DNA of 58,577 nt, taken from the IMG/VR virus record IMGVR_UViG_3300036851_000446, positions 1 to 58,577 of that record; one strand, given 5' to 3'. The DNA is from a virus. How positions within the stretch are numbered: position 1 is the first letter of the stretch; the number at the start of each line of letters is the position of its first letter. The notes under the pieces are model-generated. The model saw only the letters and a program-made list of their open reading frames with translations, was not told the DNA's origin and made no database searches. A program made the position numbers and the translations under genes. Shown here piece by piece: positions 3,826-16,370 of the stretch.

Positions 3826-4220
3826 GACTCACCGCTCCGCTGACAGCGGGCGCAGCCGCCGGGGCAGAAGTGCAGTCCGAGCCAGGTGACCCCACCGTCG
3901 GCCAACAGAGCCATCGCAGCGAGTGCGTCGACCAGCGCATTGAACACCTCCGCCGTGCCCGGCAGTTGCTTGCCGCGGACGACGCGAGGCTTCTCTCGCC
4001 ATAGCAGTGCGGTACCGTGCTCACCGAGCAGGTCGGCCACCCCTTCGCACCGCGCCCTCAGGTAGTCGGTGTCGCCCGTCGGCATCTCGGCTATGCGCAG
4101 CGGCACCGCGACGGCGAGCGTGGCTTGCAGGAGCCCCGCCGTCGGGTCGATCAGTGTTTCGACGACCTCGGACGGATCGCGGTCGCCCTGGTCGAGGATG
4201 AGGTTCAGTCGTTCGGTCAT
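3822..4220 (-). CDS. Hypothetical protein, 132 aa
   Basis: Largely helical protein beginning MTERLNLILDQGDRDPSEVV, with hydrophobic helices (LLQATLAVAVPLRIAEM; ALVDALAAMALLADGG) and a C-terminal CPGGCARC tail that could bind zinc. No known family recognised. Start and stop overlap the neighbouring genes by four bases. Confidence 0.6.
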   Translation of the reverse strand: MTERLNLILDQGDRDPSEVVETLIDPTAGLLQATLAVAVPLRIAEMPTGDTDYLRARCEGVADLLGEHGTALLWREKPRVVRGKQLPGTAEVFNALVDALAAMALLADGGVTWLGLHFCPGGCARCQRSGES

Positions 4221-4822
4221 CCGGTCACCGCCGCTCGGACGTCGTCGGTGGTGAACGCCGGCGGGGTCGACGTGTGGCGCCAGGGGCGGCCGGTGGCGGC
4301 GACGCGGCGGAGCTTGGCGATCCCGGCCCGCAGGTTGGAGTTGGCGCCCTTGACCGAGAGCAGGCCGTTGTCGCTGCCCTGGCTGCCGAAGTGCTCACGC
4401 TTGGTGTGGGTGCCGGCGTGAACGGCCATCCACGCGATGACGTCGGCCTGGATGTCGGTCAGGTGCGCCATGTCGGCCCACCGCTGCAACGTGACCCGAT
4501 CGTCGATCTGGCGGTAGCCGGGGTCGACGGTGCGGGCGATCAGCCACTCGGGGTCGTGCAGCTCGTCGGCGACCTCTTCGTGGGCCATGACCCGTGCCCG
4601 CTTGGCGCGGCCGTGGCCGACCTCGCGGTCCATGTGGAGCCAGCACCACGACAGCAGCGACCGGCCACCGTCCTCGCGCCAAGTGGCGACACCGCAGGCG
4701 ATGCCGTATATGGCGTCGGACAGGACGTCGGCTTCGTCGCGGACGCCGAGCATGTGACGGTGGGCGAGGTACCGCTTGGCGAGGGCCATCGGATTGTTGA
4801 TGCCGCGCAGGTCGTCCGTCAT
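4217..4822 (-). CDS. Sigma-factor-like protein (tentative)
   Basis: 201 aa from the ATG at 4822, which overlaps the previous stop; the longer open frame has no matching upstream features. Residues about 30-75 (EADVLSDAIYGIACGV, then SLLSWCWLHMDREV) resemble sigma region 2, where a helix of the D-L-x-Q-E-A type is followed by the aromatic core-binding/-10 helix. The C-terminal LTDIQADVIAWM and NSNLRAGIAKLRRVA resemble region 4. Similarity is by eye only. If right it would redirect host RNA polymerase to phage promoters. An unrelated helical protein is the alternative. Confidence 0.4.
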   Translation of the reverse strand: MTDDLRGINNPMALAKRYLAHRHMLGVRDEADVLSDAIYGIACGVATWREDGGRSLLSWCWLHMDREVGHGRAKRARVMAHEEVADELHDPEWLIARTVDPGYRQIDDRVTLQRWADMAHLTDIQADVIAWMAVHAGTHTKREHFGSQGSDNGLLSVKGANSNLRAGIAKLRRVAATGRPWRHTSTPPAFTTDDVRAAVTG

Positions 4823-5025
4823 CAGCTGGCCTCCTTGGTGAATGCGGGGGCGACCAGCAACACCACACCGATCGACAACAGACCCGCGCCCGAGACGAAC
4901 ATCCCGCCCGACGGGGACGCCAACAACCACGGGGTGACCGCCAGACACGCCACCGCGAACACGACACGGACGTACCAGGCCGACTCGGCCGGGGAGAACG
5001 CCAGGGTGATGAGGTCGCCGGGCAT
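4822..5025 (-). CDS. Small membrane protein, 67 aa
   Basis: Two predicted transmembrane helices: about residues 18-35 (AWYVRVVFAVACLAVTPWLL) and 41-60 (MFVSGAGLLSIGVVLLVAPA), with a short charged C-terminal tail. Starts MPGDLI; the stop overlaps the sigma-like gene's ATG. No family assigned. It could be membrane-acting in early takeover or exclusion, but nothing in the sequence decides. Confidence 0.6.
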   Translation of the reverse strand: MPGDLITLAFSPAESAWYVRVVFAVACLAVTPWLLASPSGGMFVSGAGLLSIGVVLLVAPAFTKEAS

Positions 5026-5303
5026 CACTCGGCCGCCTCGGGGAGCACCTTCACCAGGGCGTAGCCGCAGCGGTACAGGTTCTCGATGACGGCCTGGCTG
5101 ATCCGGTTCTCGCTGTGGCCCCACTGGGGGTCCCAGTCGGGCCAGCGGCCCCAGTCGACCGAGTTGCTGGCGGCGGACAGGATCGGGTCGGCCCACGTCC
5201 ACGTGCCGCCGTTCTCCCACAGCCCGAACTCCGGGTTGTAGGTGCCGGGCCGGTCGACCGCGGTGGCTTCCTCGACGGGGATGGGGTCGCTGACGCGGAC
5301 CAT
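5025..5303 (-). CDS. Hypothetical protein, 92 aa
   Basis: Starts MVRVSDPIPVEEATAV. Tryptophan-rich centre (FGLWENGGTWTWADP; WGRWPDWDPQWGH) and a helical C-terminus (QAVIENLYRCGYALVKVL). No family recognised. It is flanked by one-base overlaps with both neighbours, so it is probably part of one translation unit. Confidence 0.6.
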   Translation of the reverse strand: MVRVSDPIPVEEATAVDRPGTYNPEFGLWENGGTWTWADPILSAASNSVDWGRWPDWDPQWGHSENRISQAVIENLYRCGYALVKVLPEAAE

Positions 5304-11182: not shown

Positions 11183-11904
11183 GCGCCACCGAGCCCGACG
11201 TCCAGGTGAACCCTCGCGGCTGGCGCCAGCTGGTCAACAACACGAGCCGGGTCGGCGAGATCGACGCCGTCTACGCCGACCTCGTGTCCGCGCTCGGAGC
11301 CCCGATGGACCCCGGCTACGAGAAGTGCGACGCCTACTGGCTGATCCTCTGGCCCGACGGGATCGTCGCCACGGTCTACAACTACAAGGACGGCCGACGG
11401 TACCTCGGCGACGCGGGGCTGCCAGTCGAGCAGATCCGGGAGTGGCACATCGGCTCACATCCCGAGCAGTGCGAGCCCCGCGTGGTCGTCCGGGCGGTCG
11501 ATGGGCTGATCCGGTTGCGGCGAAAGGCCGACGAGCCCGACGACCAGTCCGAGCCGATCGATCAGTTCGGACGCACGCTGCTGAATCGCTTACGCAGTGA
11601 GAGCCAAGCCTACGGCGACCACCGGGGCGCTGGCGGGCTCTGCGGCGAGGCCGCTGACGAGATCGAACGTCTGCGCTCGGACCTGCACAACATGGGCGTG
11701 GGGCGGGAGAAGCTCCGTCAACGGCTGAGCGCCGACAACGAGAGGCTGCGGGGGCTGAACGACGAGGTCAATCTCAAGCTCGGTGGACTCGAAGGCGACC
11801 TGCACCTGATCGCCACCCGGCACGGCTTCCCCAACTGGAAGACCTACGCCGAGGATCTCGACAAGTGCCTGGTGATCCGGGAGATCGAAGATGACAATGG
11901 GTGA
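11179..11904 (+). CDS. Hypothetical protein, 241 aa, with coiled coil
   Basis: Starts MSATEPDVQVNPRGWRQLV. The first 110 residues form a mixed alpha/beta region with several tryptophans (YWLILWPDGIVATVYNY). The C-terminal half is helical and coiled-coil (EAADEIERLRSDLHNMG; LSADNERLRGLNDEVNLKL). Such coiled-coil proteins of the actinophage accessory arm are usually of unknown function. Overlaps both neighbours. Confidence 0.65.
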   Translation: MSATEPDVQVNPRGWRQLVNNTSRVGEIDAVYADLVSALGAPMDPGYEKCDAYWLILWPDGIVATVYNYKDGRRYLGDAGLPVEQIREWHIGSHPEQCEPRVVVRAVDGLIRLRRKADEPDDQSEPIDQFGRTLLNRLRSESQAYGDHRGAGGLCGEAADEIERLRSDLHNMGVGREKLRQRLSADNERLRGLNDEVNLKLGGLEGDLHLIATRHGFPNWKTYAEDLDKCLVIREIEDDNG

Positions 11905-12109
11905 CCTCGCCGCCGATGCCGCCGACGTGTGCGCCTGGGCGGCGGACCTGTCCAACCGGATGCGCCGCTTCGAACCCGTCCCCGACGACGAGCTGGCGGC
12001 GTTCGAGGCCCGCAAGGAGAGCGTGGTCGAACGCATCGAGCCGGGGTTCTATGAGGACTATGGAGACGACGATGCGGAAAATTCCGACCCTGTTCGTGCG
12101 CGACCCTGA
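11891..12109 (+). CDS. Small acidic protein, 72 aa
   Basis: MTMGDLAADAADVCAWAADL, then FEPVPDDELAAFEARKESVV and a strongly acidic C-terminus. The gene overlaps the end of the previous gene and the first 38 bases of the RNA ligase gene. No domain recognised; possibly a partner of the ligase by position only. Confidence 0.55.
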   Translation: MTMGDLAADAADVCAWAADLSNRMRRFEPVPDDELAAFEARKESVVERIEPGFYEDYGDDDAENSDPVRARP

Positions 12110-12638
12110 CGACATGCGCCGGGTCCTGCCCGAAGTGCACCCGGACTGCAAGTGGGTGCTCGACGGCGAGGGTACGGCCACCCGCAAGTACGACGGGATC
12201 TGCGTGCGCCTGACTCGCGACGGCCCCTGGTGGGCTCGGCGCGAGATCAAGCCCGGCAAGGAGGCGCCGGCCAACTTCGTGCCCGAGCAGCTCGACGAGG
12301 CCACGGGCAAGACGTTCGGCTGGGAACCGATCGAGCAGACCGGCTGGGTGAAGTACCTCAACGAGGCCACCACCGCGGCCATGCCCGGCCTGACGTCAGG
12401 CACCTACGAGCTGTGCGGACCCAAGATCAATCGCAACCCCGAGGGCTACCCCGGCCATCGCCTGATCCGCCACGAGGTCGCCGAGGTCGATGTGCTCACG
12501 TCCAACGGCGAGCCCCGGGACTTCGCGGGTTGCCGTAGCCGCGTGGTCCAGCTCGGCGAGCGTGGGTGGGAGGGCATCGTGTGGCACCACCCCGACGGAC
12601 GCATGGCCAAGCTCAAGGCGCGGGACTTCAAGTTCTAG
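12072..12638 (+). CDS. RNA ligase, RLIG1/DUF5565-like
   Basis: 188 aa. Nucleotidyltransferase motifs are in order: motif I KYDG with adenylated Lys39 (ATRKYDGICVRL), the ARREIKPG segment, motif III-like TYELCGPKINRNPEGYPGHR (about 111-130), motif IV EGIVWHHPDG (167-176) and motif V KLK at the C-terminus. The spacing and the GPKINRNPEGY and EGIVWH blocks resemble vertebrate C12orf29/RLIG1, a 5'-3' RNA ligase, rather than T4 Rnl1. Start 12072 has GGAG six bases upstream; 12060 is an alternative. It probably seals broken RNA, with tRNA a natural substrate. It lies 2 kb from the Ro60/Y-RNA locus on the same strand. Confidence 0.8.
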   Translation: MRKIPTLFVRDPDDMRRVLPEVHPDCKWVLDGEGTATRKYDGICVRLTRDGPWWARREIKPGKEAPANFVPEQLDEATGKTFGWEPIEQTGWVKYLNEATTAAMPGLTSGTYELCGPKINRNPEGYPGHRLIRHEVAEVDVLTSNGEPRDFAGCRSRVVQLGERGWEGIVWHHPDGRMAKLKARDFKF

Positions 12639-13047: not shown

Positions 13048-13221
13048 TGCCGCACCTTCCCTTTGTGGGTGGGGCCATGTCCCCGGTCGATGCCACTCGA
13101 CGCGGGGACCGTTCCGTTCAGGGTGCGCTTGGTTGCACGGACAGTTAAAGCCGCGTGACCGTGCAGAAACCGTGCCCCGTGTCGGCTACCGTGGGTGGCA
13201 ACAAAGGGAAGGGGCCGGACG

Positions 13222-14022
13222 GTGGCACGTCGGCAACGACTCGTCGACAGACGAGAGGAACTCGGGCTCACCCAAGAGGACGTCGCCCGCGCCGCGGGGC
13301 TCACCGCCAACAGCATCCGCCGCTACGAACTCGGGCTCTCGACCCCACGCGGCGGGGACCGGCGGGCGTACGCCGAGGCGCTGGGGTGGGAACCTCTCCA
13401 GCTCGCCATGGCGATGAGCGACGAACCTCAGCCGGTCAACGGCCACGCCGTCCCCGGGTGGCTGGGTCATCTAGCTTCCCTCGAGCAGGCTGCCGGCAGG
13501 GTGGCGGCGTTCGAACCCGTCGTCGTCCATGGCCTGTTGCAGACCGCTGCCTACGCCTGTGCGATCGAAGCCATCGGGCCCGACTCGGTCAGCGGGGACG
13601 CCGTAGCTCGCAAGGTCGAGAACCGTCTCGCCCGCCAAGCCGTCCTCGACCACAACCGCTTCGAGCTCGCGGTGGTGCTCGACGAATCCGTTCTCCGGCG
13701 ACAAGCCGGCGGCCGGGATGTGATGGCCGCGCAGCTCGATCACCTCGCCGAGATCAGCGCCCACCCTGCCGTCGATCTGCGGGTGCTGTCGCTCAGTTCG
13801 GGTGTGTTCTCCGCGGCGTTCGGGTCGTTCTCGTTGTTCGCCCAGCCGGGTGCCAGCGACCCGTACATGGCTGTAACGGAGGACCGTGCCGGCCCTCACT
13901 ACCTGGACCGCCCCCACGAGCTGGAAGCGCATTCAGCCCTGTTCGCCCACCTGTCCGACGCGGCGTGGCCACCGACGGCATCCGTTGACCTGATCCACGC
14001 TGTCTCCAAGGAGTACCGATGA
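13222..14022 (+). CDS. XRE regulator with DUF5753 (Scr1-family antitoxin-like)
   Basis: 266 aa from GTG 13222, which has AAGGGAAGG upstream; GTG 13195 is the alternative. N-terminal HTH (GLTQEDVARAAGLTANSIRR), then a DUF5753 sensor-type domain (FEPVVVHGLLQTAAYACAIE; VVLDESVLRRQAGGRDVMAA; LYLD-like HYLDRPHELEAHSALF). In streptomycetes this architecture pairs with a DUF397 protein encoded next to it, and some such pairs behave as toxin-antitoxin or developmental regulators. Here the partner follows with an ATGA overlap. It may control lysogenic genes or act as an addiction module. Confidence 0.85.
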   Translation: MARRQRLVDRREELGLTQEDVARAAGLTANSIRRYELGLSTPRGGDRRAYAEALGWEPLQLAMAMSDEPQPVNGHAVPGWLGHLASLEQAAGRVAAFEPVVVHGLLQTAAYACAIEAIGPDSVSGDAVARKVENRLARQAVLDHNRFELAVVLDESVLRRQAGGRDVMAAQLDHLAEISAHPAVDLRVLSLSSGVFSAAFGSFSLFAQPGASDPYMAVTEDRAGPHYLDRPHELEAHSALFAHLSDAAWPPTASVDLIHAVSKEYR

Positions 14023-14213
14023 CAACACCCCGTTGGCGCATCTCGTCGTTCAGCGGCCAGAACGGCTCGTGTGTCGCCATTGCACCCGTCGATGACGCGG
14101 TGCTGGTGCGCAACAGCGTCCACCCCGACCGCGGGACCCTCGCGTTCCCGGCTGGTGCGATGGCGGCGTTCGTCGCCGCGGCTAAGGCCGGCGAGTACGA
14201 CGACCTCGGTTAA
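14019..14213 (+). CDS. DUF397 protein
   Basis: 64 aa, full family length. Diagnostic features are WRISSFSGQNGSCVAIAP near the N-terminus, then VLVRNSVHPD and FPAGAMAAFVAAAKAGEYD at the end. The ATG overlaps the XRE gene's stop (ATGA), the standard arrangement for XRE-DUF5753/DUF397 pairs, in which the small protein may be the toxin or the ligand of its partner. It ends only a few bases before the promoter of the Y-RNA/Ro60 locus. Confidence 0.88.
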   Translation: MTTPRWRISSFSGQNGSCVAIAPVDDAVLVRNSVHPDRGTLAFPAGAMAAFVAAAKAGEYDDLG

Positions 14214-14217
14214 GCGC

Positions 14218-14246
14218 TTGACGCGATAAGCCGCTTATCGTACGGT
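14218..14246 (+). promoter_or_regulatory. Promoter of the Y-RNA/Ro60 transcript
   Basis: TTGACG (14218-14223), exactly 17 bases, TACGGT (14241-14246). It is the best plus-strand promoter in the window. The start point near 14253 coincides with the first base of Y-RNA element 1 (14254), so that RNA could be made without 5' processing. Confidence 0.75.
14224..14240. promoter_or_regulatory. Operator palindrome filling the promoter spacer
   Basis: CGATAAG-CCG-CTTATCG is a perfect 7+3+7 inverted repeat that occupies precisely the 17 bases between the -35 and -10 boxes. A dimeric repressor bound here would block RNA polymerase. Candidate proteins are the XRE regulator encoded just upstream or the HTH protein encoded after Ro60. 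Confidence 0.65.
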
Positions 14247-14253
14247 GGTCCTC

Positions 14254-14318
14254 GGTTCGGGCCGAAGCCTGCCGGTTACCTGGCATTGGACTCCGGTTGG
14301 TACTCACATGCCCGAGCC
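14254..14318 (+). ncRNA. Y-RNA-like element 1
   Basis: About 65 nt. The end helix pairs 14254-14262 (GGTTCGGGC) with 14310-14318 (GCCCGAGCC). An internal loop of CGAA facing ACTCACAT follows, then a second helix GCC-T-GCCGG/CCGGT-T-GGT with one U-U mismatch, and a short apical loop. The CCGAAG...GGTTA order is the Ro-binding signature of Y RNAs from bacteria and animals. It shares the linker ACAAGGTCT with element 2. Confidence 0.75.
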
Positions 14319-14333
14319 ACACAAGGTCTGTCC

Positions 14334-14403
14334 GTTGCGGGCCGAAGCGGTCTGGTTACCCACTCTTAATGGAACCTCCAGTCCGCACCCACATGCCCGC
14401 AAC
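14334..14403 (+). ncRNA. Y-RNA-like element 2
   Basis: About 70 nt. Perfect 9-bp end helix GTTGCGGGC/GCCCGCAAC, internal loop CGAA facing ACCCACAT, second helix GCGG-T-CTGG/CCAG-T-CCGC with the same U-U mismatch as element 1. Many helix bases differ from element 1 yet pairing is kept, which is evidence for selected structure. The apical hairpin CCA-CTCTTAA-TGG has the C-U-NNN-A-A form of an anticodon loop with CUU at the anticodon position. Confidence 0.78.
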
Positions 14404-14416
14404 ACAACAAGGTCTC

Positions 14417-14554
14417 GCGCTGCGGGCCGAAGCGATGCCGGTTACCACTTGTAATGGAGAGGCCCCGGGTTCGAATCCCGGTCGCTGCCCGAAAGGGTTG
14501 CGGTAGCTCAGCGGTAGAGCGCTTAACCCGGTTCGCACAACACGCCCGCAGCGC
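14417..14554 (+). ncRNA. YrlA-like Y RNA with permuted tRNA domain
   Basis: About 138 nt. Perfect 11-bp end helix (14417-14427 with 14544-14554), CGAA facing ACAACAC, then helix GCGA-GCC-GGTT/AACC-GGT-TCGC. Inside, in circularly permuted order, lies a full tRNA body. The anticodon-like loop CTTGTAA (14448-14454, UGU) with CCA/TGG stem comes first, then a 5-nt variable region, T stem CCGGG/CCCGG with loop TTCGAAT (14465-14481), acceptor-like helix 14482-14490/14495-14503 closed by GAAA, TA (U8-A9), and D stem GCTC/GAGC with loop AGCGGTA (14506-14520). This is the order seen in tRNA-mimicking YrlA RNAs. Confidence 0.85.
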
Positions 14555-14574
14555 TCAACCCCTTCGGAGCGCTC

Positions 14575-16155
14575 GTGAGCATCCTTGGCGACATCGGACC
14601 CCGCAGCACCCCGCAGACGGAGCGGGCCCACCCGGACCAGCGGGAGAACAACGCCGGCGGGTACTCCTTCACCGTCTCGGACTGGGATCGGCTCGCCCGG
14701 TTCCTCGTGCTCGGCGTCGACGCCGGCACCTACTACGTGCAGCCCCGCAAGCTCGCGGTCGACAATGCCGCTGTCGTGGTTCGCTGTCTCGACGCCGACC
14801 CTCGGCGGACCGTGGACCTGGCGGTCGCTGTGTCGACGGATGGCCGGGCGCCGAAGAACGACCCCGCCGTCTTCGTGCTGGCCATGGCCGCACGTCACTC
14901 GGACGTTTGGGCCCGGCGGTACGCGATGGACCATCTCGGCGATGTGTGTCGCATCGGGACGCACCTGTTCCACTTCGCCCAGTTCGTTCAGGCGCAGCGG
15001 GGTTGGGGTCGGCTGCTGCGCGACAGCATCGCCATCTGGTACGAGCGCGACGACCTCGACGGGCTCGCCTACCAGACCGTGAAGTACCGCCAGCGCGACG
15101 GCTGGACCCACCGGGACCTGCTGCGCAAGGCCCACCCCGCGGCGCCCACCGGCGGTCACAAGGCGCTGTACGACTTCATCTGCGGGCGCCCGGCCGAGAA
15201 CCTGCCCCGGATCGTCGAGGGCTACCTCAAGATGGTCGAGGCCAGCGACCCCGACGAGGCCGCCGCGCTTGTGCGCGAGTACAACCTGCCGTGGGAGACG
15301 GTCCCCTCAGACCTGCTCGACGCCACGGTGTGGGGAGCGCTGCTCGACTCGCATTCGCTGCCGCTCGGCGCGATGGTCCGCAACCTCGGCGTGATGACCA
15401 CCAAGGGCGTGCTCACCCAGGGGTCGAGCCGCACCGCGACGGTCACAGCGAAGCTCGCCGACGTGGAAGCGATCCGCAAGGCACGACTGCACCCGATCGC
15501 CATCCTCAACGCTCTCGTCACCTACAGCTCGGGTGCCGGGTTCCGCGGTGGGCTCACCTGGACGCCGGTCCCCCGCGTCGTCGACGCGTTGGACGCCGCG
15601 TTCTACACGGCGTTCGCCACGGTCGAGCCCGCGGGCAAGCGCACCGTCCTCGCCCTAGACGTGTCGGGGTCGATGCACGGCTATGAGGCAGTGCAGGGCT
15701 CGTCGTTCTCGGCCGCCCAGGGCGCCGCCGCGATGGCACTGGTGACCGCGGCGACCGAGCCCGAGACGATCCCTGTGGCGTTCTCGCACGAGATGATCCC
15801 GGTCGACGTGTCGCCCCGCCGCCGGCTCGACGACCAGATGCGGGCGCTGTCGGGCATCCCGTTCGGCCGAACCGACTGCTCGCTGCCGATGTTGTGGGCA
15901 CTCGAGAACAATGTGCAGGCCGACACCTTCGTCGTCTACACCGACTCGGAGACCTACGCCGGGCGGATGCACCCGCACCAGGCGCTCACCCAGTATCGGC
16001 AGCGGACCGGCATCGCCGCCCGGCTCATCGTCGTGGGGATGACCGCGGCCGAGTTCACCATCGCCGACCCCAGCGACCCGGGGATGTTGGACGTGGTCGG
16101 GTTCGATTCGGCTGCACCGGGGATCATGTCGGCGTTTTCGGCCGGCCGGTTCTAG
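14575..16155 (+). CDS. rsr: Ro60/Rsr protein (TROVE-VWA)
   Basis: 526 aa, close to human Ro60 (538). The N-terminal TROVE HEAT-repeat ring begins NAGGYSFTVSDWDRLARFLV then DAGTYYV, matching the GGY...RLxRFLxxG...GTYY block of Ro60. The C-terminal von Willebrand A domain has a full MIDAS: DVSGSM (362-367), the threonine in FGRTDCSLPM and YTDSETY. The ring binds misfolded or 3'-ended RNA and its outer surface binds Y RNA. Starts at GTG 14575 with GGAG five bases upstream. Three Y-RNA elements form its leader. In bacteria Rsr works with Y RNA and exonucleases in RNA decay and survival after stress. Confidence 0.95.
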   Translation: MSILGDIGPRSTPQTERAHPDQRENNAGGYSFTVSDWDRLARFLVLGVDAGTYYVQPRKLAVDNAAVVVRCLDADPRRTVDLAVAVSTDGRAPKNDPAVFVLAMAARHSDVWARRYAMDHLGDVCRIGTHLFHFAQFVQAQRGWGRLLRDSIAIWYERDDLDGLAYQTVKYRQRDGWTHRDLLRKAHPAAPTGGHKALYDFICGRPAENLPRIVEGYLKMVEASDPDEAAALVREYNLPWETVPSDLLDATVWGALLDSHSLPLGAMVRNLGVMTTKGVLTQGSSRTATVTAKLADVEAIRKARLHPIAILNALVTYSSGAGFRGGLTWTPVPRVVDALDAAFYTAFATVEPAGKRTVLALDVSGSMHGYEAVQGSSFSAAQGAAAMALVTAATEPETIPVAFSHEMIPVDVSPRRRLDDQMRALSGIPFGRTDCSLPMLWALENNVQADTFVVYTDSETYAGRMHPHQALTQYRQRTGIAARLIVVGMTAAEFTIADPSDPGMLDVVGFDSAAPGIMSAFSAGRF

Positions 16156-16370
16156 TGGTCGACCCCGAGCTTGCTCGCCGCATCGTGACAGCGGCCCGCA
16201 AGGGGCCCGAGTGGATCCGGCGCCGTGACGAGGCCATCGTCGAGGCGCTCGAAGCCGGCGGGTCACAACGCGAGGTGGCGCAGTTGGCCGGGCTGACACA
16301 GCCGGCGGTGTCCGGCATCCACCAACGGTGGCGCGAATCGCGGGCACCCAGCGGGGAGGACGAGCGGTGA
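16155..16370 (+). CDS. Small HTH protein, 71 aa
   Basis: GTG start overlaps the last base of the Ro60 stop. After a basic N-terminus (RRIVTAARKGPEWIRRRDEA) comes a clear helix-turn-helix: GSQREVAQLAGLTQPAVSGI then HQRWRES. It resembles the short Actinobacterial HTH_29-like or sigma region 4-like DNA-binding proteins. Co-transcribed with Ro60, so it may bind the palindrome in the promoter as an autoregulator. Confidence 0.75.
   Translation: MVDPELARRIVTAARKGPEWIRRRDEAIVEALEAGGSQREVAQLAGLTQPAVSGIHQRWRESRAPSGEDER

What the first reader, a model, noticed from the sequence alone, without database searches (positions are those of the whole stretch)
14218..16155. Phage-borne Ro60 RNP: three tandem Y RNAs ahead of a full-length TROVE-VWA gene
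Seen: a 526-aa protein with the Ro60 N-terminal block and a complete MIDAS, preceded by three elements that each fold into the Y-RNA two-helix stem with CCGAAG...GGTTA. Helix sequences differ among the elements but pairing is kept, including a shared U-U mismatch in elements 1 and 2. Known: bacterial Rsr acts with a Y RNA encoded nearby, and some actinophages carry Ro60 genes. Three tandem Y RNAs of two kinds in one leader seem unusual; the copies could give RNPs with different partners.
Basis: partly seen in the sequence, partly recalled or inferred. Interest (0 to 1): 0.9.

Follow-up and report, generated by a model that had tools for sequence, protein, structure and literature searches.

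The report
Phage Ro60 gene with three Y RNAs
A bacterial virus carries a complete copy of the RNA-handling protein Ro60 with three of its small partner Y RNAs (two short, one containing a tRNA look-alike) in front of the gene; this is real and well supported, but the same arrangement occurs in many other phages, so it is a new example of a known system.

Summary
The 526-aa protein (14575-16155) is a full Ro60/Rsr: phmmer E 1e-133 to D. radiodurans Rsr, Pfam TROVE and Ro60-vWA, MIDAS complete. A covariance model built only from other loci finds Y1 (E 4e-10) and Y2 (E 1e-11). A second one finds the tRNA-like domain of Y3 (E 1e-10). All 18 Y-stem pairs covary across 144 sequences. Y1 and Y2 are short (mini) Y RNAs; Y3 is a YrlA-type Y RNA whose loop is a permuted tRNA (T arm, acceptor closed by GAAA, D arm). 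Three Y RNAs of two kinds are not unusual: 22 of 89 Ro60 loci with enough sequence have three or more within 1 kb upstream (up to six), and 32 of 89 mix the two kinds, including the well-known mycobacteriophage cluster C1. Most likely function: a phage-encoded RYPER-like RNP, Y3 tethering Ro60 to host PNPase, Y1 and Y2 gating Ro60 (inferred). Side finds: a phage Y RNA with a whole tRNA-Ile in its loop, Y genes interleaved with tRNA genes, and Y RNAs misannotated as tRNAs or ORFs.

The parts
14218..14246 (+). candidate promoter: TTGACG (14218-14223), 17-nt spacer, TACGGT (14241-14246); predicted start at about 14252-14254 coincides with the 5' end of Y1; perfect palindrome GATAAGCCGCTTATC (14225-14239) in the spacer is a candidate operator
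   Evidence: sequence and coordinates; palindrome occurs once in the window; below the generic promoter-scan threshold; inference
14253..14319 (+). Y1, short (mini) Y RNA, two-helix stem with CCGAAG...GGTTAC
   Evidence: independent CM R1 E 4.2e-10; Rfam RF01656 29.9 bits; fold z -2.7
14333..14404 (+). Y2, short (mini) Y RNA
   Evidence: independent CM R1 E 9.8e-12; Rfam RF01656 36.5 bits; fold z -4.3
14417..14554 (+). Y3, YrlA-type Y RNA with 11-bp outer helix; loop holds a tRNA-like domain
   Evidence: R1 finds the 5' arm (E 0.019); RF02553 YrlA 28.2 bits; helices
14463..14520 (+). tRNA-like domain of Y3: T arm 14465-14481, acceptor-like helix closed by GAAA 14482-14503, linker UA and D arm 14504-14520 (permuted tRNA order)
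   Evidence: independent CM R2 54 bits, E 1.3e-10; acceptor helix covaries at all 7 pairs in 22 relatives
14321..14329 (+). ACAAGGTCT spacer between Y1 and Y2, repeated exactly at 14407-14415 between Y2 and Y3; duplication scar or processing site
   Evidence: role inferred
14575..16155 (+). Ro60/Rsr gene (TROVE + vWA), 526 aa; K170, R174, H187 and MIDAS conserved
   Evidence: phmmer to 2nvo E 1.2e-133; PF25045 E 4e-65, PF05731 E 4e-36; phrog_850; alignment A1
16155..16370 (+). 71-aa HTH protein whose GTG start overlaps the Ro60 stop codon (probably translationally coupled)
   Evidence: no relative found next to other phage Ro60 genes

Best explanation
The phage makes its own Ro60 ribonucleoproteins. 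One promoter just ahead of Y1 probably transcribes Y1, Y2, Y3 and the Ro60 mRNA; the Y RNAs are cut out of the leader. Each Y stem binds the outer surface of the Ro60 ring. Y3 carries a tRNA-mimicking effector domain that, as in Deinococcus RYPER, tethers Ro60 to host polynucleotide phosphorylase so that structured RNA is threaded through Ro60 and degraded. Y1 and Y2 have no effector domain and most likely act as gates that occupy or stabilise Ro60 and limit substrate access. Shown here: the protein family, the three Y folds, covariation and the tRNA-like domain. Inferred: transcription unit, processing, Ro60 binding, PNPase tethering, gating.
For: Ro60 identity. Independent covariance-model hits for Y1, Y2 and the Y3 tRNA-like domain. 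Covariation at all 18 Y-stem pairs, 84% of cells paired against 36-45% when slid, and at all 7 acceptor pairs of the tRNA-like domain, 97% against 29-49% for that whole domain. In 100 Ro60 loci all 174 R1 matches lie on the Ro60 strand. K170, R174 and H187 are conserved; a Ro60 H187S mutant loses mouse Y3 RNA binding (PMC11277228). Y RNA tethers Rsr to PNPase in D. radiodurans, and the tRNA-like domain is reported as the PNPase-binding effector (PMC8394870, PMC7790460, PMC4726728).
Against: No expression or binding data. No PNPase was seen among the window proteins examined (not searched for exhaustively), so the exonuclease would have to come from the host. The mini Y RNAs have no tested role in any phage. 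The promoter is weak by consensus.
Confidence: 0.55

Rival explanations
1. The tRNA-like Y3 is a decoy or guard: Ro60 plus Y RNAs protect phage translation from tRNA-cleaving host defences or serve as an RNA-repair platform.
For: Hughes et al. propose that the YrlA tRNA-like domain could competitively inhibit the anticodon nuclease (PMC7790460); a jumbo-phage survey files TROVE proteins with RNA repair (PMC7824862); the window has an RLIG1-type RNA ligase at 11904-12638, about 2 kb upstream.
Against: RLIG1 is found in 1 of 50 Ro60 virus records, RtcB in 1 of 50; PF09414 RNA ligases in 14 of 50, mostly far from Ro60 in large phages. The Y3 domain lacks an anticodon arm, so it is a poor decoy for an anticodon nuclease.
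Confidence: 0.2
2. The Y elements act mainly in cis, as a leader that stabilises the Ro60 mRNA or lets Ro60 control its own translation.
For: Y3 ends 20 nt before the GTG start; its 3' strand can also pair with the ribosome-binding site region.
Against: That alternative hairpin is no better than shuffles (z -0.69). In several phages the Y RNAs lie downstream of Ro60 or inside tRNA clusters away from its leader, and the tRNA-like domain has no obvious cis role.
Confidence: 0.1
3. The array is a by-product of Y duplication with no separate roles; one Y RNA would be enough.
For: The identical ACAAGGTCT spacer between the copies suggests duplication; array size varies from 0 to 6 among relatives.
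Against: Helix sequences differ but pairing is kept in all three copies; mixed arrays recur in 32 of 89 loci.
Confidence: 0.15

Closest known systems
YrlA-type bacterial Y RNA with Rsr (Salmonella, Mycobacterium, Deinococcus; Rfam RF02553; Chen et al. 2014; structure 6CU1)
   Same: Ro60 gene with adjacent Y RNA; Y stem plus T arm, acceptor-like helix and D arm in permuted order.
   Different: Below the Rfam gathering cut-off; on a phage; accompanied by two short Y RNAs.
Cluster C1 mycobacteriophages (e.g. Essence, MK359358): three Y RNAs ahead of the Ro-like gene
   Same: mini, tRNA-like, mini array directly upstream of a 45%-identical Ro60.
   Different: Order mini-tRNA-mini instead of mini-mini-tRNA; a much larger phage (156 kb) than this integrase-bearing one.
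RYPER (Ro60, Y RNA, PNPase) of Deinococcus radiodurans
   Same: Rsr homologue (best solved match 2nvo) and tRNA-like Y RNA.
   Different: PNPase partnership not tested here; phage origin.
Nematode stem-bulge RNAs and vertebrate Y RNAs (RF01656)
   Same: Two-helix stem with CCGAAG and GGUUA; RF01656 is the Rfam family nearest to Y1 and Y2.
   Different: Match is below cut-off; bacterial-virus setting.
Putative Y RNAs of Listeria phage CKA15 (PMC12282133)
   Same: Phage Rsr-like gene near abundant small RNAs suggested to be Y RNAs.
   Different: That proposal rests on transcription, this one on structure and covariation.

Membership tests
Ro60/Rsr protein family | TROVE domain plus Ro60 vWA domain over the whole length | tested here: met
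   PF05731 and PF25045 above cut-off; phmmer to 2nvo residues 3-525, E 1e-133
Ro60/Rsr protein family | complete MIDAS DxSxS...T...D | tested here: met
   D362, S364, S366, T433, D457 invariant in 26 sequences
Ro60/Rsr protein family | Y-RNA-binding residues (K170, R174, H187) and RNA binding | tested here: inconclusive
   residues present; binding itself not testable
Y RNA (Ro60-binding stem) | outer helix, asymmetric internal loop with CGAA, inner helix, GUUA loop, supported by covariation | tested here: met
Y RNA (Ro60-binding stem) | encoded next to a Ro60 gene | tested here: met
   14253-14554, ending 20 nt before the start codon
Y RNA (Ro60-binding stem) | stable RNA bound to Ro60 in vivo | not testable with these tools
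   needs RNA sequencing or pull-down
YrlA (Y3) | tRNA-like domain with T arm, acceptor-like helix and D arm in permuted order | tested here: met
   CM R2 E 1.3e-10; covariation
YrlA (Y3) | Rfam RF02553 at its gathering score | tested here: not met
   28.2 bits against a cut-off of 69; matches in L003, L025 and L106 also fall short at 35-41 bits, so the cut-off looks too strict for phage members; this is a database threshold, not a structural feature
YrlA (Y3) | substrate of tRNA-modifying enzymes (TruB, DusA) | not testable with these tools
   needs biochemistry
YrlA (Y1, Y2) | tRNA-like domain | tested here: not met
   17- and 22-nt loops without T or D arms; they are Y RNAs but not YrlA
RYPER complex | Y RNA tethers Ro60 to PNPase | not testable with these tools
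   inferred by analogy

The most novel reading that the evidence does not exclude
Phage Ro60 loci are combinatorial: one Ro60 is loaded with an array of Y RNAs whose effector ends differ (none, permuted tRNA mimics with different acceptor helices, or even a complete tRNA), giving several RNPs with different partners, perhaps used against tRNA-targeting host defences.
Probability: 0.25. Interest if true: 0.7.

Novelty: new member of a known kind. Interest (0 to 1): 0.4.

Why it matters
Ro60 and Y RNAs are best known as human lupus autoantigens, and what phages use them for is unknown. This small integrase-bearing phage offers a compact version with both kinds of Y RNA, so the roles of the short and tRNA-like kinds could be separated by deletion. 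The survey shows that mixed Y arrays are common in phage Ro60 loci, that Rfam cut-offs miss them, and that annotation pipelines record some of them as tRNAs or as spurious ORFs.

Tried and rejected
Rfam at gathering thresholds and ARAGORN on the window: nothing. Chance: rejected by independent models, strand bias and covariation. Rarity of three Y RNAs: rejected. A conserved HTH partner downstream of Ro60: no relative at other loci. Linkage with RNA ligases (RLIG1, RtcB, RNA_ligase): not general. SD-sequestering alternative fold: not better than shuffles. Chen et al. 2014 and Sim and Wolin 2018, the key papers, are not held; their content is taken from citing papers and from memory.

Full report
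What was claimed. A phage-borne Ro60 gene preceded by three tandem Y RNAs of two kinds, presented as unusual.

The protein. ORF 14575-16155 (+) starts with GTG and encodes 526 aa. Its best solved relative is the D. radiodurans Rsr 2nvo (E 1.2e-133 over residues 3-525), then vertebrate Ro60. Pfam finds TROVE and the Ro60 vWA domain and PHROGs phrog_850, an RNA-binding protein. In an alignment of 26 relatives the MIDAS residues D362, S364, S366, T433 and D457 are invariant; K170 and R174 are invariant and H187 nearly so. H187S in Ro60 abolishes binding of a mouse Y RNA (PMC11277228); the roles of K170 and R174 are from memory.

The record. It is an IMG/VR virus record of 58,577 bases with terminase, portal, major head protein, tape measure and a serine integrase, so 'phage-borne' holds. 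The genes just before the leader are an XRE-DUF5753/DUF397 pair, which from general knowledge is typical of actinobacteria.

The Y RNAs. Rfam at its curated cut-offs finds nothing. With lax thresholds Y1 and Y2 match the nematode stem-bulge family RF01656 and Y3 matches YrlA RF02553. To test this without circularity, a covariance model (R1) was built from 30 short Y elements of other loci, with the window left out. It finds Y2 at E 9.8e-12, Y1 at E 4.2e-10 and the 5' arm of Y3 at E 0.019. A second model (R2) of the tRNA-like domain, again without the window, finds 14463-14520 in Y3 at E 1.3e-10. In Y3 the order is T arm (CCGGG UUCGAAU CCCGG), an acceptor-like helix closed by GAAA, the UA linker that corresponds to positions 8-9 of tRNA, and the D arm (GCUC AGCGGUA GAGC). 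The place of the anticodon arm is taken by the Y stem. This is the YrlA architecture.

Covariation. In 144 distinct Y elements all 18 stem pairs show changes on both sides; 84% of cells pair against 36-45% when the partner is slid (the alignment is fitted to the model, which favours pairing). In 22 tRNA-like domains the acceptor helix covaries at all 7 pairs; over the whole domain 97% of cells pair against 29-49% when slid, on an alignment not fitted to the structure. In 100 Ro60 loci all 174 R1 matches at E up to 1 lie on the Ro60 strand.

How unusual is it? Not very. 438 virus contigs encode a relative and 342 phage records do. Among 89 loci with at least 900 nt upstream, the number of Y RNAs within 1 kb is 0 in 25, 1 in 16, 2 in 26, 3 in 14, 4 in 5, 5 in 2 and 6 in 1; 32 of 89 mix both kinds (these counts include the window and a few bacterial contigs, come from the loci fetched rather than an even sample, and probably undercount because divergent Y RNAs are missed). 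Mycobacterium phage Essence, of the heavily sampled cluster C1 group, has mini, tRNA-like, mini directly ahead of its Ro gene. Y RNAs in mycobacteriophages were reported in 2014 (Chen et al., cited in PMC12282133).

The U-U mismatch is at inner pair 4 in Y1 and pair 5 in Y2, so it is not shared in register; Y3 has a bulged inner helix.

Expression. TTGACG-17-TACGGT (14218-14246) would start transcription at the 5' end of Y1; a perfect palindrome sits in its spacer and is unique in the window. The generic scan does not reach threshold, so this is inference. The spacers between Y1/Y2 and Y2/Y3 share the identical 9-mer ACAAGGTCT, suggesting duplication or a processing site. In Gordonia phages Y genes lie end to end with tRNA genes, which suggests that tRNA-processing enzymes release them there (inference).

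Mechanism. The best-supported model is a phage RYPER-like particle: Y3 tethers Ro60 to host PNPase, and the short Y RNAs gate Ro60. Tethering and gating by Y RNA are described for D. radiodurans (PMC4726728, PMC8394870) and are inferred here; assigning the gate role to the short Y RNAs is my own inference. A defence-related role (tRNA mimic as decoy, RNA repair) has been proposed for related systems (PMC7790460, PMC7824862). The RLIG1-type RNA ligase in this window is suggestive, but it is found in only 1 of 50 Ro60 virus records, so linkage is not general.

Verdict. Real and well supported; a new member of a known kind, with a wider pattern of mixed Y arrays that deserves a census.

Noticed in passing
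L106 (IMGVR_UViG_3300021181_000012) 4974-5118: A Y RNA stem whose loop holds a complete, non-permuted tRNA-Ile(GAU) (ARAGORN 5020-5094, Rfam tRNA 46.9 bits), inside an array of six Y elements downstream of Ro60. The last Y stem is followed by a T run like a terminator.
   Followed up: partly
L003 (IMGVR_UViG_3300037510_000569) 4143-4939: Six tandem Y RNAs (mini, four with whole or partial tRNA-like domains, mini) ahead of Ro60; most are preceded by TAGACT/TAGGCT, possibly their own -10 elements.
   Followed up: partly
L017, L020, L021 (Gordonia phages Mareelih, Sixama, GMA2): Y RNA genes lie end to end with tRNA genes inside tRNA clusters downstream of Ro60.
   Followed up: yes
L022 1501-1567 (Microbacterium phage SM23), L023 1050-1128 (prophiGD43A-5): Annotated tRNA-Asn and tRNA-Thr overlap YrlA-type tRNA-like domains, so they are probably misannotated Y RNAs.
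   Followed up: partly
L025 1422-1583 and 1588-1761 (Mycobacterium phage Essence): Annotated hypothetical proteins 229 and 230 lie over the Y RNAs and are probably spurious ORFs.
   Followed up: partly
window 11904-12638 (+): RLIG1-type RNA ligase (PF17720 E 1.8e-7; KYDG, EGIVW, AKLK motifs) about 2 kb upstream of the Y array; absent from 49 other Ro60 virus records.
   Followed up: yes
window 13195-14213 (+): XRE-DUF5753 regulator followed by DUF397 directly upstream of the candidate Y promoter with its palindrome.
   Followed up: no
L023 1100-1478 (M. abscessus prophage prophiGD43A-5): Three tRNA-like domains preceded by a variant 5' arm (GGAC...CGGTTACC) without CGAAG, perhaps a divergent Y stem class.
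   Followed up: no
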